NCBI GenBank assembly: GCA_002105175.1
Contig: MCGE01000013.1
Span: forward strand, 372,001-436,000
Reading direction: 5' to 3'
Source of the DNA: Absidia repens
Taxonomy: Eukaryota > Mucoromycota > Mucoromycetes > Mucorales > Cunninghamellaceae
DNA: 64,000 bases
The notes under the pieces were generated by a model, which was given only the letters and a program-made list of their open reading frames with translations, had not been told where the DNA came from and did no database searches. The translations under genes and the position numbers were made by a program. The stretch's first letter is position 1; every line of letters starts with the position of its first letter. Of this stretch, positions 3,952 to 64,000 are shown piece after piece.

Positions 3952-6106
3952 ATCGGTGGACCGTGACCTCATATATCCTTAGTTATATCCTTAGTTATAT
4001 CCTCCTCCTCCTCCCTTCTTTATCTTTGATATTTCCAATACATTTATTTTACCCTTTAGTTTCAGTTATGTCGATTCTCCCTTTCCTCTTTTTTGATTAT
4101 TTATGTATTACTCTTTGATTATTCGCTCAATAAAAAAAAATTCTTATTTACCGTACATAGTCATTCTGTTTCTATTTTTTTTTTTTTAAGAAAATTGTAT
4201 GACATGTGTTATCAAATGGTTTTGCGCTACTGCGTGCTGCTTTCAATTTGGGCTTCTTTTTTATTTATTTATTATACCACAAGCGAAAATAAAAAATATA
4301 GAATGTCTATCCTAGCAGTATGACCTAGATTGATTAATATGAATAGTTGAGAGGAGGTAGGGGAAGGGGGAAGAAATAGGGCTATATTTCATATTACTGA
4401 CGTTCAACTGTCGACTAATTGCTCGGTCACTATGCGGTGGTACAAGCAATCGTAGAGAAGCTAGGAAAGAAATGGAAAAATGCTCTATAGCGGAGGCTAC
4501 ACACACAGCACGGCCAACATTTATCTATATGATTGGTCATACTGTAAAGGGATATAGCCATTTTTGATAATTGGGTGATATAATATGTTGTTGGGTTTCT
4601 AGCTGGGGGAAGAGAATGTAGTCATAGCGGTGAACTAGAAAAGCTGGTGTTTGGCAGGGTATTCACAAAACAGCCACCATAGCAATATTCTTTATTATTC
4701 TATGCGTCATAGTATAGCTGATAATAAAAAGGCATATTTTATTGAAATATATTGCTAGATACTAAACTAAATGCAAAGGGCTCATTGGATTTAGGGGAAG
4801 ACCTTTGGGAGGAAGCATGAGGGAGAATAAAACGAGATTTGAAGAATGGTCAACACTAATCTAGATGGGTAATTGTAAAAAGGGATCTAATATCCTGTAG
4901 AATACGAGTCATGCCAAAGCCCAACCGTGTAAGCTTTATTGAGGCATAACAATGTTCAACATTCATCAATTGGGAAGGCTGATGGTATTAAGGAAGGTGA
5001 TCTATCGCAAAAGAAATGAGAGAAGTTTACGGGTCATTTTTCATTGAAGCAAGTAAAAACAAAGACATGTTTTATTCAAATATGGATTCAAACTATGGAT
5101 AAACTAAGACTAAACTAAGGTAATGGTGACTCCATAAATGTCAACTAATGGTGGTCCTAAAATCCTGAATTCAAAATGAAAGGGTTTCCCCATGCACCTT
5201 GTATTGCCTGAGCTGAAATCCCTTCTAAACTAGACCTGACACTAATCTAAGTCCAACATGAACCCAAAGACGTTGAATGGCGAAGGAAAGAAAAAAAAGA
5301 AAATGAAAAGAAAGAGAGACCGCCGAAAAAAAAAAAAAAAAATTGGGAGTAAATAAAAAAATCACATGGACGGAATTTGAAATACGTCTTTCTGATCTCT
5401 CCTGCGGGTTTGGTTTGCGTTTGTTATTATTTTTTGGTAGATACCCAAAAGGAAACTTCCCCTCTTTTTTTTTTACAGCGATCAACATCGCACAAAATTA
5501 TCACCGTGGTTTTTCTGTTCTCACATCGGTACTATACAGTGCTTGTGCATGGAGATGAAAAAAAAAAAAAGCTAATGTGCGTGTGCGCAAATAGATGAGA
5601 GGCAGTAACGATCAACTTTAAATGTCTATGCTGATGCGATTTCTTTGTATATATCAAAAAAATACGCTCTTCTCCACCATACTATAGTTTTTCGAGAAAT
5701 GTAAGGTGTAATATCATAGCGAAATGCCTTGAACTTCAAAAGGCAATGTCTAAGCACCGTAACATTTATTCCTTTATTACATTTAATCTTTCTTAGGAAT
5801 GCAATGTCGGAGCACTATCATATACCACTGTCCGACAATAGCGCTTTCACTATAAACAGCACTTTCACAATATAGTCTCCCACGACTATCAACACTTTTC
5901 CCACACAATATTTGATTTCCGAAGACTCCGTAGGTATAGCATCAAAACGTTAATTGGGACAATAAAATGTGATAAATATTGTTTATTGATAAATTAGAAA
6001 TACAAAGATGAATAGATAATATAAGTAAACAAGATATAGAGTAACTAATTTCAGTATAAATAAGTATACAGGAGGTTAAAATAATAATAATAAAGGGTAA
6101 GAGAAA
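3952..6106. other. Intergenic region holding one dispersed repeat copy
   Basis: It contains the kinase 3' UTR (poly(A) signal near 4129), then AT-rich sequence, then repeat copy A (about 4595-5390). The short open frames here are low in complexity and lack domain signals, so I see no gene. 5980-6100 is the 3' flank of the minus-strand transporter; TTTATT near 5981 would be AATAAA on that strand. Confidence 0.6.
4595..5390 (+). repeat. Dispersed repeat family, copy A
   Basis: Same order of blocks as the other copies: GGTGAACTAGAAA at the left (shared with copy G), repeated TTTTATTGAA motifs, the core AATGAAAGGGTTTCCCCATG at 5175, CTTCTAAACTAG.CCTGACACTAATCTAAGTCC, an A-tract, and a degraded E-box-like block at 5362-5383. 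No open reading frame is conserved. Boundaries are by eye, and no terminal repeats or target duplications are clear. Confidence 0.8.
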
Positions 6107-7734
6107 CTAAGCTTTGACAAAGAGTTTAGGACCACTGTGCATGAATCGTAAAAGAGCAGCCATTAATCCAGCAAAGAGAAACAGCACTCCACCAAAAATG
6201 ATCGCCCCTTTGTAACTTCCACCGTTGTGATCAATAATAGCGGCTGAGATAGGTTGCCCAAATAATCCACCGAAGATCCAAGCAAAGTAGAGCCAGCCGT
6301 TGGCACTTTCCACCAATTCCACACCGACGCACTCGATAATGACTGAAGAAACACATGTGACATATCCACCACCGAAGAGACCAAAAAGAACGACAAAGGC
6401 CCATAGTGAAGCAGCTGTTTCGGCGGTATACCATACAGCCAAACATACCACGCCACACATAATAGTCACCATGCAAGTGACGTTTTTTCGCCCTATGTAG
6501 TCACTGAGAACCCCATTCGTTATTTTGCCCACCACCATTAACCCGGACATGACACCAGAGAGATTGGTCGAAATGATGGAAGGGAGACCGAGGGATTCGG
6601 CATAGGAAGGAACAAAGCTGGAAGGACTATAGAATGCAAAGTTGCCAATAAAGTGAATGCTGAATAGGACCCAAAAGCTCTTGTTTTTGAATGTGCTGGT
6701 ATCAATGAGAGGGACGTCACGAGGTATCGGGTTCAGTTGTTTTACGGTCAAAAAAGAGATAGCTAATAAGCCCATTTGCATAAACCCAAGAATACGTAGT
6801 GACCACTGGTAGCCCACACTCTCAATTGCTGCCCGAATGACATTGGTGATGACTAGCCCTCCTATACCAGATCCTAACAAAAAGAAAAAAAAAAGTGTCA
6901 ACTTGTAAATACAGAACAAATATCAGAAAAAAGAGGCACCAACCTGATATAGCAAGTCCAACAGCCAAACCACGTCGACTTGAAAACCATTGTTGAGGTC
7001 CACTGATACATGGGAACCATGCGAGCGATGAGGCAATTCCACTAAGCACACCCTGTGTGAGATAAAGGTGCCAAATCTAATGTATATGCATAATAGGAAA
7101 ACAAAAAATTGTCAAATGATTGAAGAAGAAATAAACACAAAAAAAAACAATTCAAATACCGATGAAGATATCGAGGCCATCATCATTGAAAAACCGGAAA
7201 GGATACATGCCACGCCCAACATCCATTTGTAGCCAACTTTTCCACAAAGGTACACATGAAAAGGCCCAGTGATATTTGTTAAAGCAAACCATAAAGACCC
7301 AATCCAACTCAAGTTTGTCATTTCCCCTGGGTATAAATGTTTATTGTAGTAGTTGAGGTAAACTCCCCAAGAATAACTATCAATAGAAAAAAAAAAGGTC
7401 AGTATGAATCATTGAATGAAATCAATGACCGAATATAATATCAGCTTTCTTCTATTTCTTTTATTTTTTTATTTTTTTTACCCATATCCTTGAGTTGCAA
7501 ACAGGCCCTAAAGGAGTACAAACAATAATAATAGTAATAATAATATTAACATATATTAGAAACACTGTTTATTTTCAATTTGCTGGCACCTACACAGAAA
7601 CATCCAACTACAACTAGCCATGCGATCCCACCGTTCGGAGGTTCCCGTAAATTTGATTCATCTTTTTCAATAATTTCAATACTATGAATAGTAGTTATAT
7701 CAACTTTTTCCACATCTTTGACTTCAGAGGCCAT
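6107..7734 (-). CDS. MFS monocarboxylate-type transporter (MCH family)
   Basis: Exons on the minus strand are 7594-7734, 7482-7507, 7160-7376, 6944-7076 and 6107-6873; all phases close, giving 427 residues. The N-terminal PPNGGIAWLVVVGCFC matches the conserved PDGGWGW-type entry of transmembrane segment 1 in the monocarboxylate porter family. Later segments include WIGSLWFALTNITGPF and SGIASSLAWFPCISGPQQWFSSRRGLAVGLAISGSGIGG, and the C-terminal half has six hydrophobic helices. Fungal relatives (Mch1-5) are plasma-membrane or vacuolar carriers; Mch5 imports riboflavin, and several others have no known substrate. The 26-base second exon is easily missed. The substrate cannot be read from sequence. 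Confidence 0.88.
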
Positions 7735-18217: not shown

Positions 18218-19700
18218 TTCCCCTTTCCTTTTTGATTTACATATTTTGAACACCGCCTTTTTTTTTTTTTTTTTTTTTTTTTTACAATAACACATTTACT
18301 TTATGATATCCCATTATTATTATTATTTTATTATTTTATTACTACTGTTAAATATTCTCAATCTACCAATAAACAAAATAACGCAACTTTATTTCATTTA
18401 TGTGTTCAGCTTACTGTTTTTTTGTCTACTCCTTCGAAAATGGGTACTCTAACATTATCACAGATCCATCAATGGCCTTTCATCACACAAAACTTTACTA
18501 TAACAATAAGCAATTTTTATTTAACGACCATTGATGGGGCACATTGCAGATGAAAATAATGACATTTTGGGGGGGAGGGGTGATCCAAGATTGTTCGATT
18601 AAAAAAAAAAAAAAAAGATCAGCAAGAAAAATACAATTGAAACAGCGACGAGGTACAAAATGTCAACGCAATCGAGCAATTTTAGTTAGCCTGAACCACA
18701 AAAGTCTTTTTATTGACAATCATGTCAATAAAATATATATATAAAAATGTATATACCGAGTGATGGATTCTTTATGTAGCTAATGAAATGGGATCAAATA
18801 CTTATGTCCTGCCTTATTTCTTGTTCTGCTATTAGTCTCAAAGGAACAGACCGCAGATCTTTTTTTCTTACCCCATTCAATCCTGGGGATTCAACTACAC
18901 TGTAATGTTTCATAAAAAAAATTATATATGTGTGCAACCATGATGAGTTGGCATTGCAACATAAAATTGTGCGCAAATAGGAATGTTGTCTGTGTAATCC
19001 CTCATTTCCTAATCTCACCATTGTTGTGAATGAACGAATGGGTCGGGTTTCATTGCTGAACCACAAACTACAGAATTTGGTATAATTGATTTAAAAAAGT
19101 AAACGTGGGGCTATTAATAGTAGTCTTCGTTGATTGCATACTTGCTACATTTTATAAAGATGTACCCCACGTGCAAGCAAATTTTAAAGTCCCGCTGGAT
19201 TCCTCTCGGCTACTTTCCTCTATTTTTAAATCATCCCACAAAATAAACTTGATTCAGCCTCAATGACGATGTAGTCTCAAAATGATATTATTGATAGGTT
19301 ATGAATAAGAAATATCCAGTTTATTTTGTATGCTATAGGATATTTAAAAATCAGAGAGGGAAAACTATTCTATGGTGCGTGACAAACTATACTACAATGG
19401 AGGAGAATCTAAACTAGGATACAAAGTTATTACTAGATGAGACCCACCAAACTGTTGCTGTAGAATAATGACGGTTTCTATCATGATAAAAGAACTAACC
19501 TACTGAAAATACTGCATGGTGTTGGTTGTCGTAAAAATAAAAAGTGGGAGATTCCCTTTTTTTTTTTTTTGTATGTCCTTGGATGAAAAGAAAAGGTTGC
19601 TAGGCGCAGGGTAAAACGTTAGTAATAGTTAAAAAACAACGCCACACACCACTTTTGTTAGCGGCTTACCCCTTTTCTTTTATCATTGATTAAGTTTTGT

Positions 19701-19880
19701 CTAAATGTTGTGGTATTTGTTGCTGTTGTCGATGTTGTTGTTGTTTCTGTAGGTCGGTAGAAAATACTTGGTCGTTCCAACACCCTCAATAAGACAGCGC
19801 GCAAGTCGATGGATGTTATTGACGGCATTGACATCCCGATTCCAGACTGTATAACAGTTTTGGCAAGCTAATACGGAGTG
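19701..19880 (-). pseudogene. Fanzor (eukaryotic TnpB-like) C-terminal relic
   Basis: Read on the minus strand, 60 codons from 19880 to the TAG at 19701 are open, directly after a TGA. They contain CQNCYTVWNRDVNAVNNI, then HRLARCLIEGVGTTKYFLP. The CxxC half of a zinc ribbon followed by W-N-R-D-V-N-A-x-N-N-I is the hallmark of the TnpB/Fanzor C-terminus; the Asp of NRDxNA is the third RuvC catalytic acid. A full Fanzor has several hundred residues, so only the tail survives. The first CxxC, RuvC-I and RuvC-II are absent upstream, where the sequence runs into repeat copy B about 110 bp away on the same strand. It is too short to be active. Confidence 0.72.
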
Positions 19881-19989
19881 TCACCGTCAACAACTTTGTT
19901 CATCAAATTCTTGACGCTACTCGTGCCTGACCTCAAGCATTCTACCGTGCGCCTAGCAATCCCCCAAAAAAAAATACCCACAGAAAACT

Positions 19990-20650
19990 TTCCAAATCCC
20001 GCCCACGTGAAATATTTATTTCTCCCTCCCGCTCTTTCTATTTTGCGGCTCTCTTTCTTTTGATTATTTTTTTTCTCTTCATTTTTTTTTCACGATTGTG
20101 GTCGGTATGGCTTATGTTGGACTTAGGATAGTGTCAGGACTAGTTTAGAAGCGTTTTCAGCTCAGGGATTACAACATGCATGGGGAAACCCTTTCATTTT
20201 GAATCTAGAATCTGAAGACACCATTAGTTGGTTTTTTAAAGCCATCATTAGCTTAGTTTAGTCTTAGTTTGTTATAGTTAGTATCTACATCTCAATAAAA
20301 TATGTGTCTTTTTACTTATCTCAATGAAAAATATTTCATTAGTTTCTCTCATGTCGTGTGGAATAGATTCCTTTTCTCTTTTCATTGCGTCTTTTGATTA
20401 GTGCTGACTGTTGTTATGTTTCAATAAAATATGTCCATTTAGTCTTTCCCATGTTGTTTATAGTATATTAGCACCTATTTTACAACTGTCCCTTTAGATT
20501 AGCGTTGGTCATTCTTCAGATCCCCCCCCCAATAGTCTCCCTCATGCGATCCCCATTAGACCCTTGTTATAATGAACTCCTAACTCTTACTTTAGTATTT
20601 ACCAATATGCCTTTAATAAACCTTTTATTTTTATTTTTAACAATCCTATG
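19990..20650 (-). repeat. Dispersed repeat family, copy B
   Basis: Reverse orientation relative to copy A. The E-box-like block is at 19992-20010, the core (CATGGGGAAACCCTTTCATTTT here) at 20178-20200, then AGTTTAG-rich and TCAATAAAATATG motifs at 20290 and 20420. The 3' boundary, in C-rich and T-rich DNA near 20530-20650, is uncertain. Confidence 0.8.
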
Positions 20651-21666
20651 AACTGCTATACAGTAGCAACATCATTGTTTGTTAATATTTTGTTAGTGAC
20701 TACCACACATCTGCTTTCTAGCCCTCTCCCTCCCCCATATTATGACTGCCTTATCCCCCAGAGTTCCAGCGGTTGAACGACAGTCCTAAATCCTTTAACG
20801 TCAAACCTGGGCTTATTCATAACCGACCAATTATATTAATCAACATAGATCATATTGTGAAAGTAGCCCCCCCCCATACTGTAGACTATTTTCCTTTGGT
20901 TTCTGATTAGCACACTGCCATAATAAAAATACCCTTTTTTGTTTCAAGAGTCGCTCCACCACACATATTAATGCACCAAACAGGCTTCGGCCATTTTATA
21001 CCGTTCTCCTCCTCGAGCGACTAATTGACAGCTCCTGGTCACTTCATATGAAAGGTGTCGATATTCCTGTTCTACCATTCATGTTAATCTGCCCAGGTTG
21101 TACTATCAGCATATTTATTAGAACCGACTTACAGTATATACCCAGCTCGCATATATATATAAATTTTGAATGTGGTGAAATTACCCTAAACAAAAAGAAG
21201 TTCCAAACGGAAGCCAGTTGGGCCATAATGGATCGCCTACTAAAGGACAAAATGGCAGAAGTACTGTATTTAATTCTATAAAAAATCACATTTTATAGAC
21301 CTCTGCGCCGGACACCATGTAGATCAATTTGCTGAAAGTGTGAAAATGGCTTCATCTCAGCGCAAAACCGTTTTGAAATTGGGAATGTCCTGGGACTCTC
21401 CAGGGTCGGCTAACAATATAAACACTTTTATATTTTTTACTGAGCTGCACAATAGTAATAAAAAAGGGAATAAAGGAGTATCTACTAGATCATTAATGCA
21501 GTGATAAAAAAAAAAGTAAGAAGAATTTGTATTGAGCATTATCTGTCTGTAGATGCACGATGTCTGGCCTTGCAAAAGTGGATGTTGGCTGTATTCAAAT
21601 TCCGCTTCCAGCATGGCTGAAAAAAAATGAATTTTTTCAGTTCCTTTTAGCTCTTTCCGCCGTATA

Positions 21667-61044: not shown

Positions 61045-61621
61045 GGACACTGATGTAAAAATAGTCTTGGTGGGTGAACTAGAAAGCAAATATTTAATGG
61101 GACATTCGCAAGATAGCTACAAAAGCGATATTGTTTACTATAAAGTGAGTCAGAGGATGATTGATAAAAAGACATGATTTATCGAAGTGAAGTAAATATT
61201 CAATACTAATCTGAAGGGACAATTGTAAAATGGAACCATAAATAATATACAGTACAAGGCATGAGAACGGCTAAATGGATATCTTTTATTGAAGTAAAAC
61301 AACACATTCAAAAGAACGATTGTAAAAAGGGATTTATAGAACTATACAGTATTGTACTAAACAAAACATAAGAGAGAGACTAATGAGACATTGTTTTTGA
61401 AGCATGTACAAGAAATATGTTTTATTGCGATGTAGATCCAAACTATGGTAAACTAACACTAAATTAAGCTAATGGAGGGCTCCAAAAAGCCAACTAATAG
61501 TGGTCTTAAATCCTGAATCCAAAATGAAAGGGTTTCCCCATGCATCTTGTAATCCCTTAGGTGAAACCTCTTCTAAACTAGTCCTGACACTATTCTAGGT
61601 CCTTCATAACACCATTGAAGG

Positions 61622-61652
<31 letters not shown>

Positions 61653-61715
61653 AAGGGTGGCGAAAAAGTAAAATAAATATTCAGGTGGGCGGGATTTGAA
61701 ATGTTGTTTTTTGGT
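61045..61715 (+). repeat. Dispersed repeat family, copy G
   Basis: GGTGAACTAGAAAGC at about 61073 (shared with copy A), TTTTATTGAAG motifs, core at 61519-61545, CTTCTAAACTAGTCCTGACAC, an A-tract of about 29 at 61621-61650, and AAATATTCAGGTGGGCGGG at about 61675-61693. Confidence 0.85.
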
Positions 61716-62240
61716 GAGAAGGGCCAGGAACCAAATTACAGGTTTTCTGGTTGAACTTGAGACGTTTTTTTTTTTTTTTTAAACGAGAATAAACTCCGCT
61801 CGAGACGATCAGCTTTCAATTTTGGACATTTTATTCAACATAGTTTAGACTAAATGATAATATGGTTTAGACAATCGTATATTTTATTTTAAACCGATCT
61901 CTTTTTGAAGACACCTCTCCCAATATGTTTTTGAGTGCCTAATGGTTTACCCCTCTTTCTTTTTAATATATTAATGCATAGGAAAAAAAAAACCGCAGCT
62001 CGTTGTGTCAAATGCTACATACAGCTGACAAAAAAAAAACCTCAACATTGTAACAGCGACATGGATCGTTGATGTGAGTGGAGGAAATGGATGGAAATTT
62101 CAAAGGCATAGATCATTATCTTCGATTAATATTTTAGATAAGGGTTTACCTCTCTTTTTAATATATTAAATTAATAAACGCTCTGGCGCTCCGCTGGAGC
62201 TTTTGGAAATCTTTCGATTTACTGGGTGTTACAGTTTTTA

Positions 62241-62586
62241 GGGTTAAAGCCTCCGCCATTTCGCACTTTGGTGGGCAGCCCCTTGGGGCCCAACCGTCGT
62301 GCTCAGCGCGTCGTCAATGGGTTCTTTTTTGTGTGCTGAAAAGAAAAAAAAAATAGTGAAGGGATTAAAGCCTCCGCCATTTCGCACTTTGGTGGGCAGC
62401 CCCTTGGGGCCCAACCGTCGTGCTCAGCGCGTCGTCAATGGGTTTTTTATGTGTGCTGAAAAAAAAAAAATTGGGAAAGGATTAGAGCCTCCGCCATTTC
62501 GCACTTTGGTGGGCAGCCCCTTGGAGCCCAACCGTCGTGCTCAGCGCGTCGTCAATAGATACTTTTTTTTGTGTGTGGTGAAAAAT
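62241..62586. repeat. Tandem repeat, three units of about 117-121 bp
   Basis: Units start near 62247, 62368 and 62485. Each reads GCCTCCGCCATTTCGCACTT, TGGTGGGCAGCCCCTTGG, a GCCCAACCGTCGTGCTCAGC block and GCGTCGTCAATGGG, then T-rich, GTGTGCTGAAA and A-tract. They are near-identical outside the A/T runs and markedly GC-richer than the surroundings. Units one and two have GGGGCCC; unit three has GGAGCCC. Confidence 0.92.
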
Positions 62587-62754
62587 GGAAGATCGAAAAA
62601 TAGGGTGACTGAGCCATTCGCACTCCGCCTCCATGGATTTAAATTTTCTGTTGGCCATTTTTTTTCTTCCTCCTTCTTTCTTTTTTTTTTTTTTTAACAT
62701 CAACTTCAACTGTGGATTTAGTGATCTTGGATTAGTGGTTAGAACTTGAATCAG

Positions 62755-62965
62755 GGCCTTTTGAAAAGTGCAATACAAACATCATGGGGAAACCCTTCCA
62801 TTTTGGATTCGTGATCTTTGACCGTCCTCAAATTAGCATTCATTTTAGAATAGTGTCATTAGCTCAACTTGGCGTTAGTTGTCATAGTTTACATTGCATC
62901 TATATCAGAATTAAACATGTCTTGTCTTTTTATTATTATTCTCTTTCATGCCTTTCATTGTCTCG
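62755..62965 (-). repeat. Dispersed repeat family, copy H (partial)
   Basis: Starts at the core (ATCATGGGGAAACCCTTCCA at 62781) and continues with GTGTCATTAGCTCAACTTGG and ATCAGAATTAAACATGTC to GCTGAATGGGC. The E-box-like block and A-tract part is missing. Confidence 0.7.
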
Positions 62966-63094
62966 CTGAATGGGCAGGGCGTATGTGCGTGGAAAAACAG
63001 AGTGTGTGGGGGTTGTGGGGTTTATGCGTAGAAAAAAAAAAACTGCAGCTCGTTGTGTAAAATGCTACGTACAGTTGCCAAAAAAAAAGCCTCC

Positions 63095-63240
63095 CCAAGT
63101 GTCATTAGCTCAGCTTAGCGTTAGTTATCATAGTTTATATTGTATCTATATCAGAATTAAACATGTCTTGTCTTTTTATTATTATTCCCTTTCATGCCTT
63201 TCATTGTCTCGCTGAATGGGCATGGCATATGTGCGTGAAA
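63095..63240 (-). repeat. Dispersed repeat family, copy I (distal part, local duplication of copy H)
   Basis: GTGTCATTAGCTCAGCTTAG through GCTGAATGGGCATGGC repeats 62853-62993 in direct orientation with only scattered substitutions. The two lie about 250 bp apart, so this is a recent local duplication. It ends about 80 bp before the orphan gene. Confidence 0.85.
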
Positions 63241-63259
63241 AAAAAAAAAAAAAAAACTA

Positions 63260-63268
63260 TATATAATC
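63260..63268 (+). promoter_or_regulatory. TATA-like element before the 160-residue orphan
   Basis: TATATATAA lies about 55 bp before the start codon at 63322, right after an A-tract that ends repeat copy I. Confidence 0.4.
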
Positions 63269-63321
63269 CTTTTTTTTTTATCATTAATTTTTTTTTCATT
63301 ACTTTTCTTATCACTCCTACA

Positions 63322-63804
63322 ATGAACCAATATTCAAAAATCAAATCAATTGAAGACTTCTCGCTTTTGTCATGCCAGACGCCCATGGCGCCCCTGGAAG
63401 AGATGGCCCATTCAAACATCATGGCATTACAAGCATTGGACGATTCTGATGAAGCATGGTTTCAAGAGCGAAGTGCTAAATGGAAAAAGAAGGATATACT
63501 CAAATTGCACATAACTCCCAACATAATCAAATTGGCACACCGTACTTTTTCTCCAAGACCACCAGTCACTGAATACTCCTCCAATTTGTTAACCCTTGTG
63601 AAAGGGATTTTAAAGAAAAAGGATATGTTGTCTGCCACTAGCCTCATCTGGCAAGAATTGAAGCTTCAAGACGAATGGTTGAAGCCTGAAGCTGGTGGTC
63701 CAGCTTCTTCTGGGCCCAAGGATGTGGAGGCGCCATCAATGAGCGGCCTACTAAATGCCATTTTTGGTGTTAGTGACGCGCTTGGCTGGGACATGCAGGA
63801 TTAA
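63322..63804 (+). CDS. Hypothetical protein, 160 residues, no recognised domain
   Basis: An intronless frame beginning MNQYSKIKSIEDFSLLSCQT. The frame is open further upstream, but through a repeat copy and T-rich DNA, so I chose this ATG, which follows a TATA-like element. The sequence is hydrophilic and probably helical (WFQERSAKWKKKDILKLHIT; KDMLSATSLIWQELKLQDEW), with a Gly/Ser/Pro linker near residue 130 and a C-terminal segment SGLLNAIFGVSDALGWDMQD. No signal peptide or membrane helix. Base composition is less AT-rich than the surroundings, which supports coding. Its position against a repeat island suggests a lineage-specific or element-associated gene. Function unknown. Confidence 0.6.
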   Translation: MNQYSKIKSIEDFSLLSCQTPMAPLEEMAHSNIMALQALDDSDEAWFQERSAKWKKKDILKLHITPNIIKLAHRTFSPRPPVTEYSSNLLTLVKGILKKKDMLSATSLIWQELKLQDEWLKPEAGGPASSGPKDVEAPSMSGLLNAIFGVSDALGWDMQD

Positions 63805-63834
63805 GTTTTCCCCCTTCCTTTTTTTCTCTTTTTT

Positions 63835-63935
63835 GTTTATCACCTTTTTATTTTTATCACATTTTTATTTTTTATCACATTTTTATTTTTTATCACATTT
63901 ATATTTTTTTATCACGTTTTTATTTTTTATCACGT
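63835..63935. repeat. Short tandem repeat of TTTTTATCAC(A/G) units
   Basis: Five or so units of about 19 bp (TTTTTATCACATTTTTATT) directly after the orphan gene, the last ones with CACG instead of CACA. Confidence 0.75.
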
Positions 63936-63964
63936 TCAGCACTCGCCGCCACTTTATTTTTTAG

Positions 63965-63972
63965 TATAAATA
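63965..63972 (+). promoter_or_regulatory. TATA box of a possible gene to the right of the window
   Basis: TATAAATA followed by C-rich and CT-rich DNA at the window edge, as in a fungal core promoter. The gene itself would lie outside. Confidence 0.35.
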
Positions 63973-64000
63973 CCCCACCTTTCCCCCGCCAATTCTCTTT

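What the first reader, a model, noticed from the sequence alone, without database searches (positions are those of the whole stretch)
19701..19880. Relic of a Fanzor RNA-guided nuclease next to a dispersed repeat
The minus strand reads CQNCYTVWNRDVNAVNNI, the zinc-ribbon and RuvC-III signature of TnpB/Fanzor proteins (family knowledge), with a natural C-terminal stop. It lies about 110 bp from repeat copy B on the same strand, as if the middle of a Fanzor-bearing element had been deleted. This offers a handle on what moves the repeat family.
Basis: partly seen in the sequence, partly recalled or inferred. Interest (0 to 1): 0.75.

Follow-up and report, generated by a model that had tools for sequence, protein, structure and literature searches.

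The report
Decayed, internally deleted Fanzor transposon
A 363-base stretch of a mould's genome is the gutted remains of a jumping gene that once carried a Fanzor RNA-guided DNA cutter; the neighbouring repeat is a separate thing, although a younger Fanzor family in the same genome often sits at the edge of that repeat.

Summary
The finding is real but modest. The stretch is a Fanzor/TnpB remnant. The whole relic is 363 bp (19597-19959, minus strand), bounded by inverted repeats sharing TTGCTAGGCGCA. The first zinc-ribbon cysteine pair is missing, frameshifts break what is left, and the stop is not natural.

The assembly, apparently Absidia repens, holds two Fanzor families. The relic is a dead member of family 2, whose best copy read (C1:1073266-1078376) keeps the RuvC-I, RuvC-II, zinc-ribbon and RuvC-III motifs between inverted ends. 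The repeat is not part of the element: it starts 21 bp outside the inverted end, is abundant, and is absent within 2 kb of six of the seven other family-2 loci read; at the seventh a weak match to another part of it touches the remnant. So the relic gives no handle on what moves the repeat.

One unexpected result: family 1 (12 Fanzor-bearing copies, 94-98% identical) lies at one edge of this repeat at 10 of 12 independent sites (10 of 15 if three 5' fragments are counted). A further family-1 copy begins in this window near 61737. The clustering was noticed after the fact; a transposase target preference is the likeliest cause, not Fanzor guiding.

The parts
19597..19959 (-). Whole relic: internally deleted family-2 Fanzor transposon, inverted end to inverted end (363 bp)
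   Evidence: Inverted arms 19597-19616 / 19940-19959, 20 nt, 90% complementary; the 3' part aligns to relics L026, L027 and L028; the 5' terminus TAGGCGCACGGTAGAAT is shared 17 of 17 with L026
19940..19959 (-). 5' terminal inverted repeat of the relic
   Evidence: L043 has TTACTAGGCGCACAG at its 5' end, with a second similar stretch 46 bp upstream
19597..19616 (-). 3' terminal inverted repeat of the relic
   Evidence: same 3' end, with substitutions, in L026, L028, L043 and L046
19761..19889 (-). Recognisable Fanzor coding remnant: second CxxC of the zinc ribbon and RuvC-III RD
   Evidence: Protein search of the own genome, C5:391761-391889 minus, E 1.7e-17, 81% identity; alignment A1
19890..19913 (-). 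Further coding remnant in another frame (part of KNLMNKVVDGDT), just after the lost first CxxC, cut off by the deletion junction
   Evidence: Alignment with L027 and L028; frame 2
19980..20721 (+). Dispersed repeat copy B: a neighbour, NOT part of the relic
   Evidence: Alignment of copies; first look in the genome gave 3849 candidates, of which 40 were scored
61737..64000 (+). 5' part of a second Fanzor-type element (family 1), starting with the flanking TA; no Fanzor exon was seen in the window or in the next 1.5 kb
   Evidence: Terminus match with 1 mismatch at C5:433741; 61733-63254 is 98% identical to the copy X18, and family-1 sequence resumes at 63917 (97%) into L057

Best explanation
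The stretch is a dead copy of a family-2 Fanzor-bearing DNA transposon. Shown: it keeps both inverted ends, a short 5' terminal piece and the 3' end of the Fanzor gene; the stretch between is deleted and the rest is frameshifted. Shown: a 5.1-kb relative with the same kind of ends and the RuvC-I, RuvC-II, zinc-ribbon and RuvC-III motifs survives in the same genome. Inferred: the live element was moved by a transposase supplied in trans that recognised the inverted ends. Inferred from published Fanzor biochemistry: its Fanzor protein cut DNA under guidance of an RNA from the element's end. This copy lost its interior by one or more internal deletions and then decayed. The neighbouring repeat is an independent, abundant sequence. 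The adjacency here is either chance or a landing preference, not shared mobility.
For: DNA homology to three other relics with the same 3' end: C11 87%, C36 72%, C1 73%; 3' end alone found in 4 places in all. Protein homology to family-2 copies on C78, C1 and C25. Inverted ends on the relic, on L043 at 1267 and 6366-6377 and on L046 at 1407 and 4185-4196. L043 exons carry GVDPG, VNEAYTS, CSKC..CSDC and WNRD, and the joined terminal exons score 48.2 bits to PF07282. Relic L026 still shows RuvC-I and RuvC-II exons. Frameshifts in the relic. The repeat lies outside the ends. The relic's only matches among solved structures up to E 10 are LaTranC chains, E 0.06 and 0.085.
Against: The target duplication of family 2 was not resolved: none at L043 or L046, and only an 8-of-9 T-run match at the relic, so the ends are inferred from inverted repeats and copy alignment. 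L026 keeps TAGGCGCACGG at its 5' end but not the TTGC before it. No transposase was identified for these ends; of 41 DDE_3 matches in the genome none lies inside L043 (the nearest, C1:1070706-1070960, is about 2.3 kb outside), and no systematic search for a MuDR-type transposase was made. PF07282 alone does not pass its cut-off on the relic.
Confidence: 0.9

Rival explanations
1. The relic and the repeat are two pieces of one large Fanzor-bearing element whose middle was deleted.
For: They lie 21 bp apart. At one other family-2 locus, L045, a weak repeat match (59%, inner part of the repeat) touches the Fanzor remnant. Family-1 Fanzor copies also have this repeat beside them at 10 of 12 independent sites.
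Against: The relic has its own inverted ends on both sides, and the repeat lies outside them. Six of the 7 other family-2 loci read have no match to the repeat within 2 kb. Beside family 1, different repeat copies (72-87% identical to the library copies) flank elements that are 94-98% identical, on either side and in either orientation, and two elements split a repeat copy.
Confidence: 0.05
2. The relic is a member of a short non-autonomous family (MITE) that spread in its 363-bp form.
For: Short, with inverted ends and no coding capacity.
Against: Two DNA searches of the own genome found four places each: the relic and three relics of other structure. No second copy of this form was seen.
Confidence: 0.05
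3. A chance zinc-ribbon-like reading in non-coding DNA.
For: Below the PF07282 cut-off when taken alone; short.
Against: E 1.4e-11 in the window against L043's Fanzor, with the reversed-window control no better than E 3.4; E 1.7e-71 DNA match to a longer Fanzor relic.
Confidence: 0.005

Closest known systems
Fanzor1 elements of Mucorales (Rhizopus ROr, Phycomyces PBl, Mucor MCi; Bao & Jurka 2013, PMC3627910)
   Same: Fungal DNA transposons that carry a Fanzor protein. [quoted passage not shown] degenerate and internally deleted Fanzor copies are described in other hosts (passages read).
   Different: The Absidia family-2 ends were not compared with those sequences (supplements not available here), and its target duplication is unresolved.
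Fanzor1 in Tc1/mariner-type elements (PUl-4, PGv-1; same paper)
   Same: Family 1 here has TA at both ends in the four copies read whole and carries Fanzor. None of 41 DDE_3 matches in the genome lies inside the family-1 copies (the nearest, C8:576731, is about 1.2 kb outside). Its first ~206 bp are shared with two ~760-bp elements that also have TA at both ends.
   Different: Two family-1 copies read also carry a Ty3-type RNase H fragment, and family 1 clusters at one edge of a dispersed repeat; I did not see either in the passages read.
Solved TnpB / Cas12 nucleases (PDB 8j1j, 23vu, 9jfo and others)
   Same: RuvC-II, zinc-ribbon and RuvC-III motifs line up with family 2; the relic matches LaTranC over its zinc knuckle and RuvC-III.
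   Different: Only weak scores (best E 0.013 for L043, 0.06 for the relic). For family 1 the top hit is RNA polymerase II subunit RPB9 (E 0.041), just ahead of a TnpB-type chain (E 0.043), so these sequence scores alone do not decide.

Membership tests
Fanzor/TnpB (published motif D-X(125,275)-[TS][TS]-X-X-C4 zinc finger-X(5,50)-RD) | Full motif in the family the relic belongs to | tested here: met
   L043: GVDPG, then by hand count on the typed exon chain in A1 about 179 residues to TS (intron borders were guessed), then C191 C194 C217 C220, 5 residues, RD. Motif wording from the abstract of PMC3627910.
Fanzor/TnpB (published motif D-X(125,275)-[TS][TS]-X-X-C4 zinc finger-X(5,50)-RD) | Full motif in the window relic itself | tested here: not met
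   Only CQNC and NRD remain; RuvC-I, RuvC-II and the first CxxC are absent. It is a relic, not a gene.
Fanzor1 as opposed to Fanzor2 | Position on a Fanzor/TnpB tree; Fanzor2 sits mostly in IS607-type elements with a serine recombinase | not tested
   No tree was built and no serine recombinase was searched for; the inverted ends and the Mucorales precedent favour Fanzor1 (inference).
MuDR-type element | 9-bp target duplication and MuDR-like ends | tested here: inconclusive
   Relic: TTTTTTTTT / TTTTCTTTT, 8 of 9 but low complexity; none at L043 or L046. Ends were not compared with published MuDR ends.
Tc1/mariner-type element (family 1, not the relic) | TA target duplication | tested here: met
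   TA at both ends of X13, X16, X17, X18, L047 and L048; for two of them (X17, X18) the joined flanks align across intact repeat copies.
Tc1/mariner-type element (family 1, not the relic) | A DDE transposase recognising these ends | tested here: inconclusive
   The 115-aa ORF of L047 has no convincing Pfam match and no match outside L047/L048 at E 0.01. The genome has 41 DDE_3 matches that could not be linked to these ends.
MITE | Several copies of the same short deletion form | tested here: not met
   one copy of this form among four matching places.

The most novel reading that the evidence does not exclude
Family-1 Fanzor elements do not land at random. They are directed to one spot, the edge of an abundant dispersed repeat that often carries a CACGTG-like box, and something in the Fanzor-bearing element itself, possibly the Fanzor complex, or a host factor bound at that edge, contributes to site choice.
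Probability: 0.1. Interest if true: 0.7.

Novelty: new member of a known kind. Interest (0 to 1): 0.4.

Why it matters
The relic itself is ordinary: it adds a second mould family member to the fungi with Fanzor-bearing transposons and shows how such an element decays to its ends. The by-product matters more. A genome with 12 nearly identical Fanzor elements, a second older family and an apparent insertion hotspot in a natural repeat is a good place to test whether Fanzor proteins influence where their transposons land or persist.

Tried and rejected
Rejected: the repeat as part of the Fanzor element; the MITE reading; a chance reading; the natural stop.

Led nowhere: the pattern TTGCTAGGCGCA across the genome with one mismatch gave 89 matches against 68 for the reversed control, so most are chance; target duplication search for family 2; Pfam on the 115-aa ORF of the 760-bp elements; DDE_3 search, which could not be tied to these ends. 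Homing by a Fanzor guide as the cause of the family-1 hotspot was considered and is disfavoured: insertion points spread over roughly 110 bp, and the copies read whole carry TA duplications, as transposition leaves, whereas homing would reuse one position. Literature: no paper in the held library has both Fanzor and Absidia, Fanzor and Mucoromycota or Fanzor and 'insertion preference'. Of PMC3627910, PMC10711439 and PMC10432273 only passages were read; of other papers only search listings.

Limits of the hotspot count: it was found after the fact. Both flanks were seen at only 4 of 12 sites (L013, L016, L017, L018); the others rest on one flank. L019 and L020 share their 3' flank and count once. 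L022 and L024 are misses on their 3' flank. The L025 relic was left out. The null comes from this 64-kb window only. Exact CACGTG was read beside only 3 of the 10 positive sites (X16, X17, X18); variants or an unseen flank elsewhere. The comparison group of six places (L047-L052, eight flanks, 0 of 6) is weak: L049, L050 and L052 hold family-1 sequence beyond the shared terminus and are better counted as Fanzor-type, giving 10 of 15 against 0 of 3 (Fisher 0.07); L048 has a repeat copy about 290 bp away.

Full report
WHAT IS THERE. PF07282, the zinc-ribbon domain of TnpB/Cas12f, matches residues 4-23 at E 0.0025 and 18.4 bits, under its cut-off of 26.3, so on Pfam alone the case would be weak. 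The genome settles it. The own assembly (47.37 Mb, 79 contigs; the window is C5:372001-436000) has 13 PF07282 matches over the cut-off; 12 score within a bit of each other, the 13th is divergent and has a stop. The relic is not among them. Its DNA matches three other places at 87%, 72% and 73%. A protein query composed from the longer relics finds the relic (E 1.7e-17) and further copies on C78, C1 and C25. The joined terminal exons of the copy L043 hit the window at the relic with E 1.4e-11, while the reversed window gives nothing better than E 3.4.

EXTENT AND STATE. An inverted pair of 20 nt, 90% complementary, bounds 19597-19959. Between the ends lie, on the minus strand, a short 5' terminal piece, a deletion junction near 19913, the 3' end of the Fanzor coding region and the 3' non-coding tail. 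Relics L026, L027 and L028 share the 3' end. L026 also shares the 5' terminus, 17 of 17 bases, and still shows RuvC-I and RuvC-II exons. Against these three copies the window relic has a 1-bp insertion after LIEGV and a 1-bp insertion at the shared stop; against L027 and L028 it also has a 10-bp gap before the second CxxC, where L026 has lost more. The stop that looked natural is therefore a stop in a shifted frame (three frames printed). The first CxxC is absent.

THE RELATIVES. Family 2 has a 5.1-kb copy at C1 (L043:1267-6377) with inverted ends, a doubled 5' terminus, and exons carrying GVDPG, VNEAYTSKV/VCSKC and WNRDVNA; the joined terminal exons score 48.2 bits to PF07282. Whether its whole gene is intact was not tested. 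One close homologue is named Absidia repens, on a contig of 1,913,450 bp, which is exactly the length of C78; the species name rests on that. Three relatives from sources without names were found; the two aligned (812 and 491 aa, 33% and 35% identity) keep the motifs, the third (686 aa, 26%) was not aligned. Family 1 is younger: 12 Fanzor-bearing copies, the other 11 at 94-98% identity to L013, about 6.5 kb where complete, with TA at both ends in the four copies read whole, RuvC-I, RuvC-II, zinc ribbon and RuvC-III motifs in the copy read, and a Ty3-type RNase H fragment in the two copies read for it. One copy (L018) has a large internal deletion. The window itself carries the 5' part of a family-1 copy from 61737, running off the right edge.

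THE REPEAT IS SEPARATE. Copy B (about 19980-20721) lies 21 bp outside the relic's inverted end. A first look with it found 3849 candidate places; 40 were scored, giving 41 matches, the 40 besides itself at 72-80% identity. The 64-kb window alone holds 8 matches, itself included. Of the seven other family-2 loci read (L026, L027, L028, L043-L046) four have no match to it, two have one 2.5 and 3.7 kb away, and at L045 a weak match (59%, an inner part of the repeat) touches the remnant. So the adjacency in the window says little, and the relic does not tell what moves the repeat.

AN UNEXPECTED PATTERN. Family 1 is different. Of 12 independent sites (11 Fanzor-bearing, L019 and L020 counted once, plus the window copy at 61737), 10 have the repeat within 100 bp, with the insertion point between about 30 bp outside and 80 bp inside one particular edge; L022 and L024 do not on the one flank seen. 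That edge has the consensus CCGCCCA(C/T)GTGAA, an exact CACGTG at 3 of the 10 sites. Two elements sit inside a repeat copy, and their joined flanks align across intact copies. In the window, 52 of 4278 TA sites lie within 100 bp of such an edge, and 199 of 2000 random TA-anchored single flanks meet any part of the repeat within 100 bp. At a generous 20% chance per site, 10 of 12 has a probability of 4.5e-6, and 10 of 15, counting the three 5' fragments L049, L050 and L052 as Fanzor-type misses, 1.1e-4. Elements that share only the terminus (L047, L048, L051) show 0 of 3, too few to say that the preference is tied to Fanzor (Fisher 0.07). All this was noticed after the fact and on incomplete flanks. 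The likeliest cause is a target preference of the transposase or open chromatin at the repeat edge. Homing by a Fanzor guide is disfavoured because positions vary over roughly 110 bp and TA duplications are present.

MECHANISM. Shown: inverted ends, shared termini, internal deletion, frameshifts, and a motif-complete relative. Inferred: movement in trans by a transposase not identified here (the genome has 41 DDE_3 matches, none tied to these ends), and RNA-guided cleavage by intact Fanzors, by analogy with characterised Fanzors (PMC10432273, passages). Not resolved: the target duplication and thus the superfamily of family 2.

VERDICT. A correct and skilful reading of a decayed Fanzor relic, ordinary in kind: fungal Fanzor-bearing elements, including in Mucorales, have been in print since 2013 (PMC3627910, passages). 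The claimed link to the repeat's mobility is not supported. The family-1 hotspot deserves a follow-up.

Noticed in passing
61737-64000 (continues into L057): 5' part of a family-1 Fanzor-type element beside another copy of the same repeat (61188-61715). 61733-63254 is 98% identical to the copy at C15; then about 660 bp holding most of a 160-aa ORF (about 63322-63801) without a Pfam match; then family-1 sequence again from 63917.
   Followed up: partly
G000:C63:42093-42845 and C67:486393-487156 (L047, L048): Two ~760-bp elements, 96% identical, with ~97-bp inverted ends (91% identical), TA at both ends, the same first ~206 bp as family-1 Fanzor elements, and a 115-aa ORF (one copy broken) of unknown kind.
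   Followed up: partly
X13 element position 1294-1620 (from G000:C15) and L018: Two family-1 Fanzor copies carry a Ty3-type reverse-transcriptase RNase H fragment (PF17917, E 3.1e-18 for the first) upstream of the Fanzor exons.
   Followed up: no
3' ends of family-1 copies (L013, L014, L015, L016, L017): The last bases before the terminal GCTG vary between copies (small losses or insertions of up to about 15 bp), as if the 3' end were trimmed or repaired at some transposition events.
   Followed up: no
19980-20721 and seven other window places: The repeat has a conserved start (CCGCCCAC/TGTGAA) and internal AATAAA-rich segments that look repeated; its class was not determined.
   Followed up: partly
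G000:C34:1923424-1923621 (L025): A divergent family-1-like Fanzor relic with a stop codon and a lost zinc-ribbon cysteine.
   Followed up: no
L045:3926-4219: A weak match (59%) to an inner part of the repeat touches a family-2 Fanzor remnant; whether it is a true repeat copy was not checked further.
   Followed up: partly
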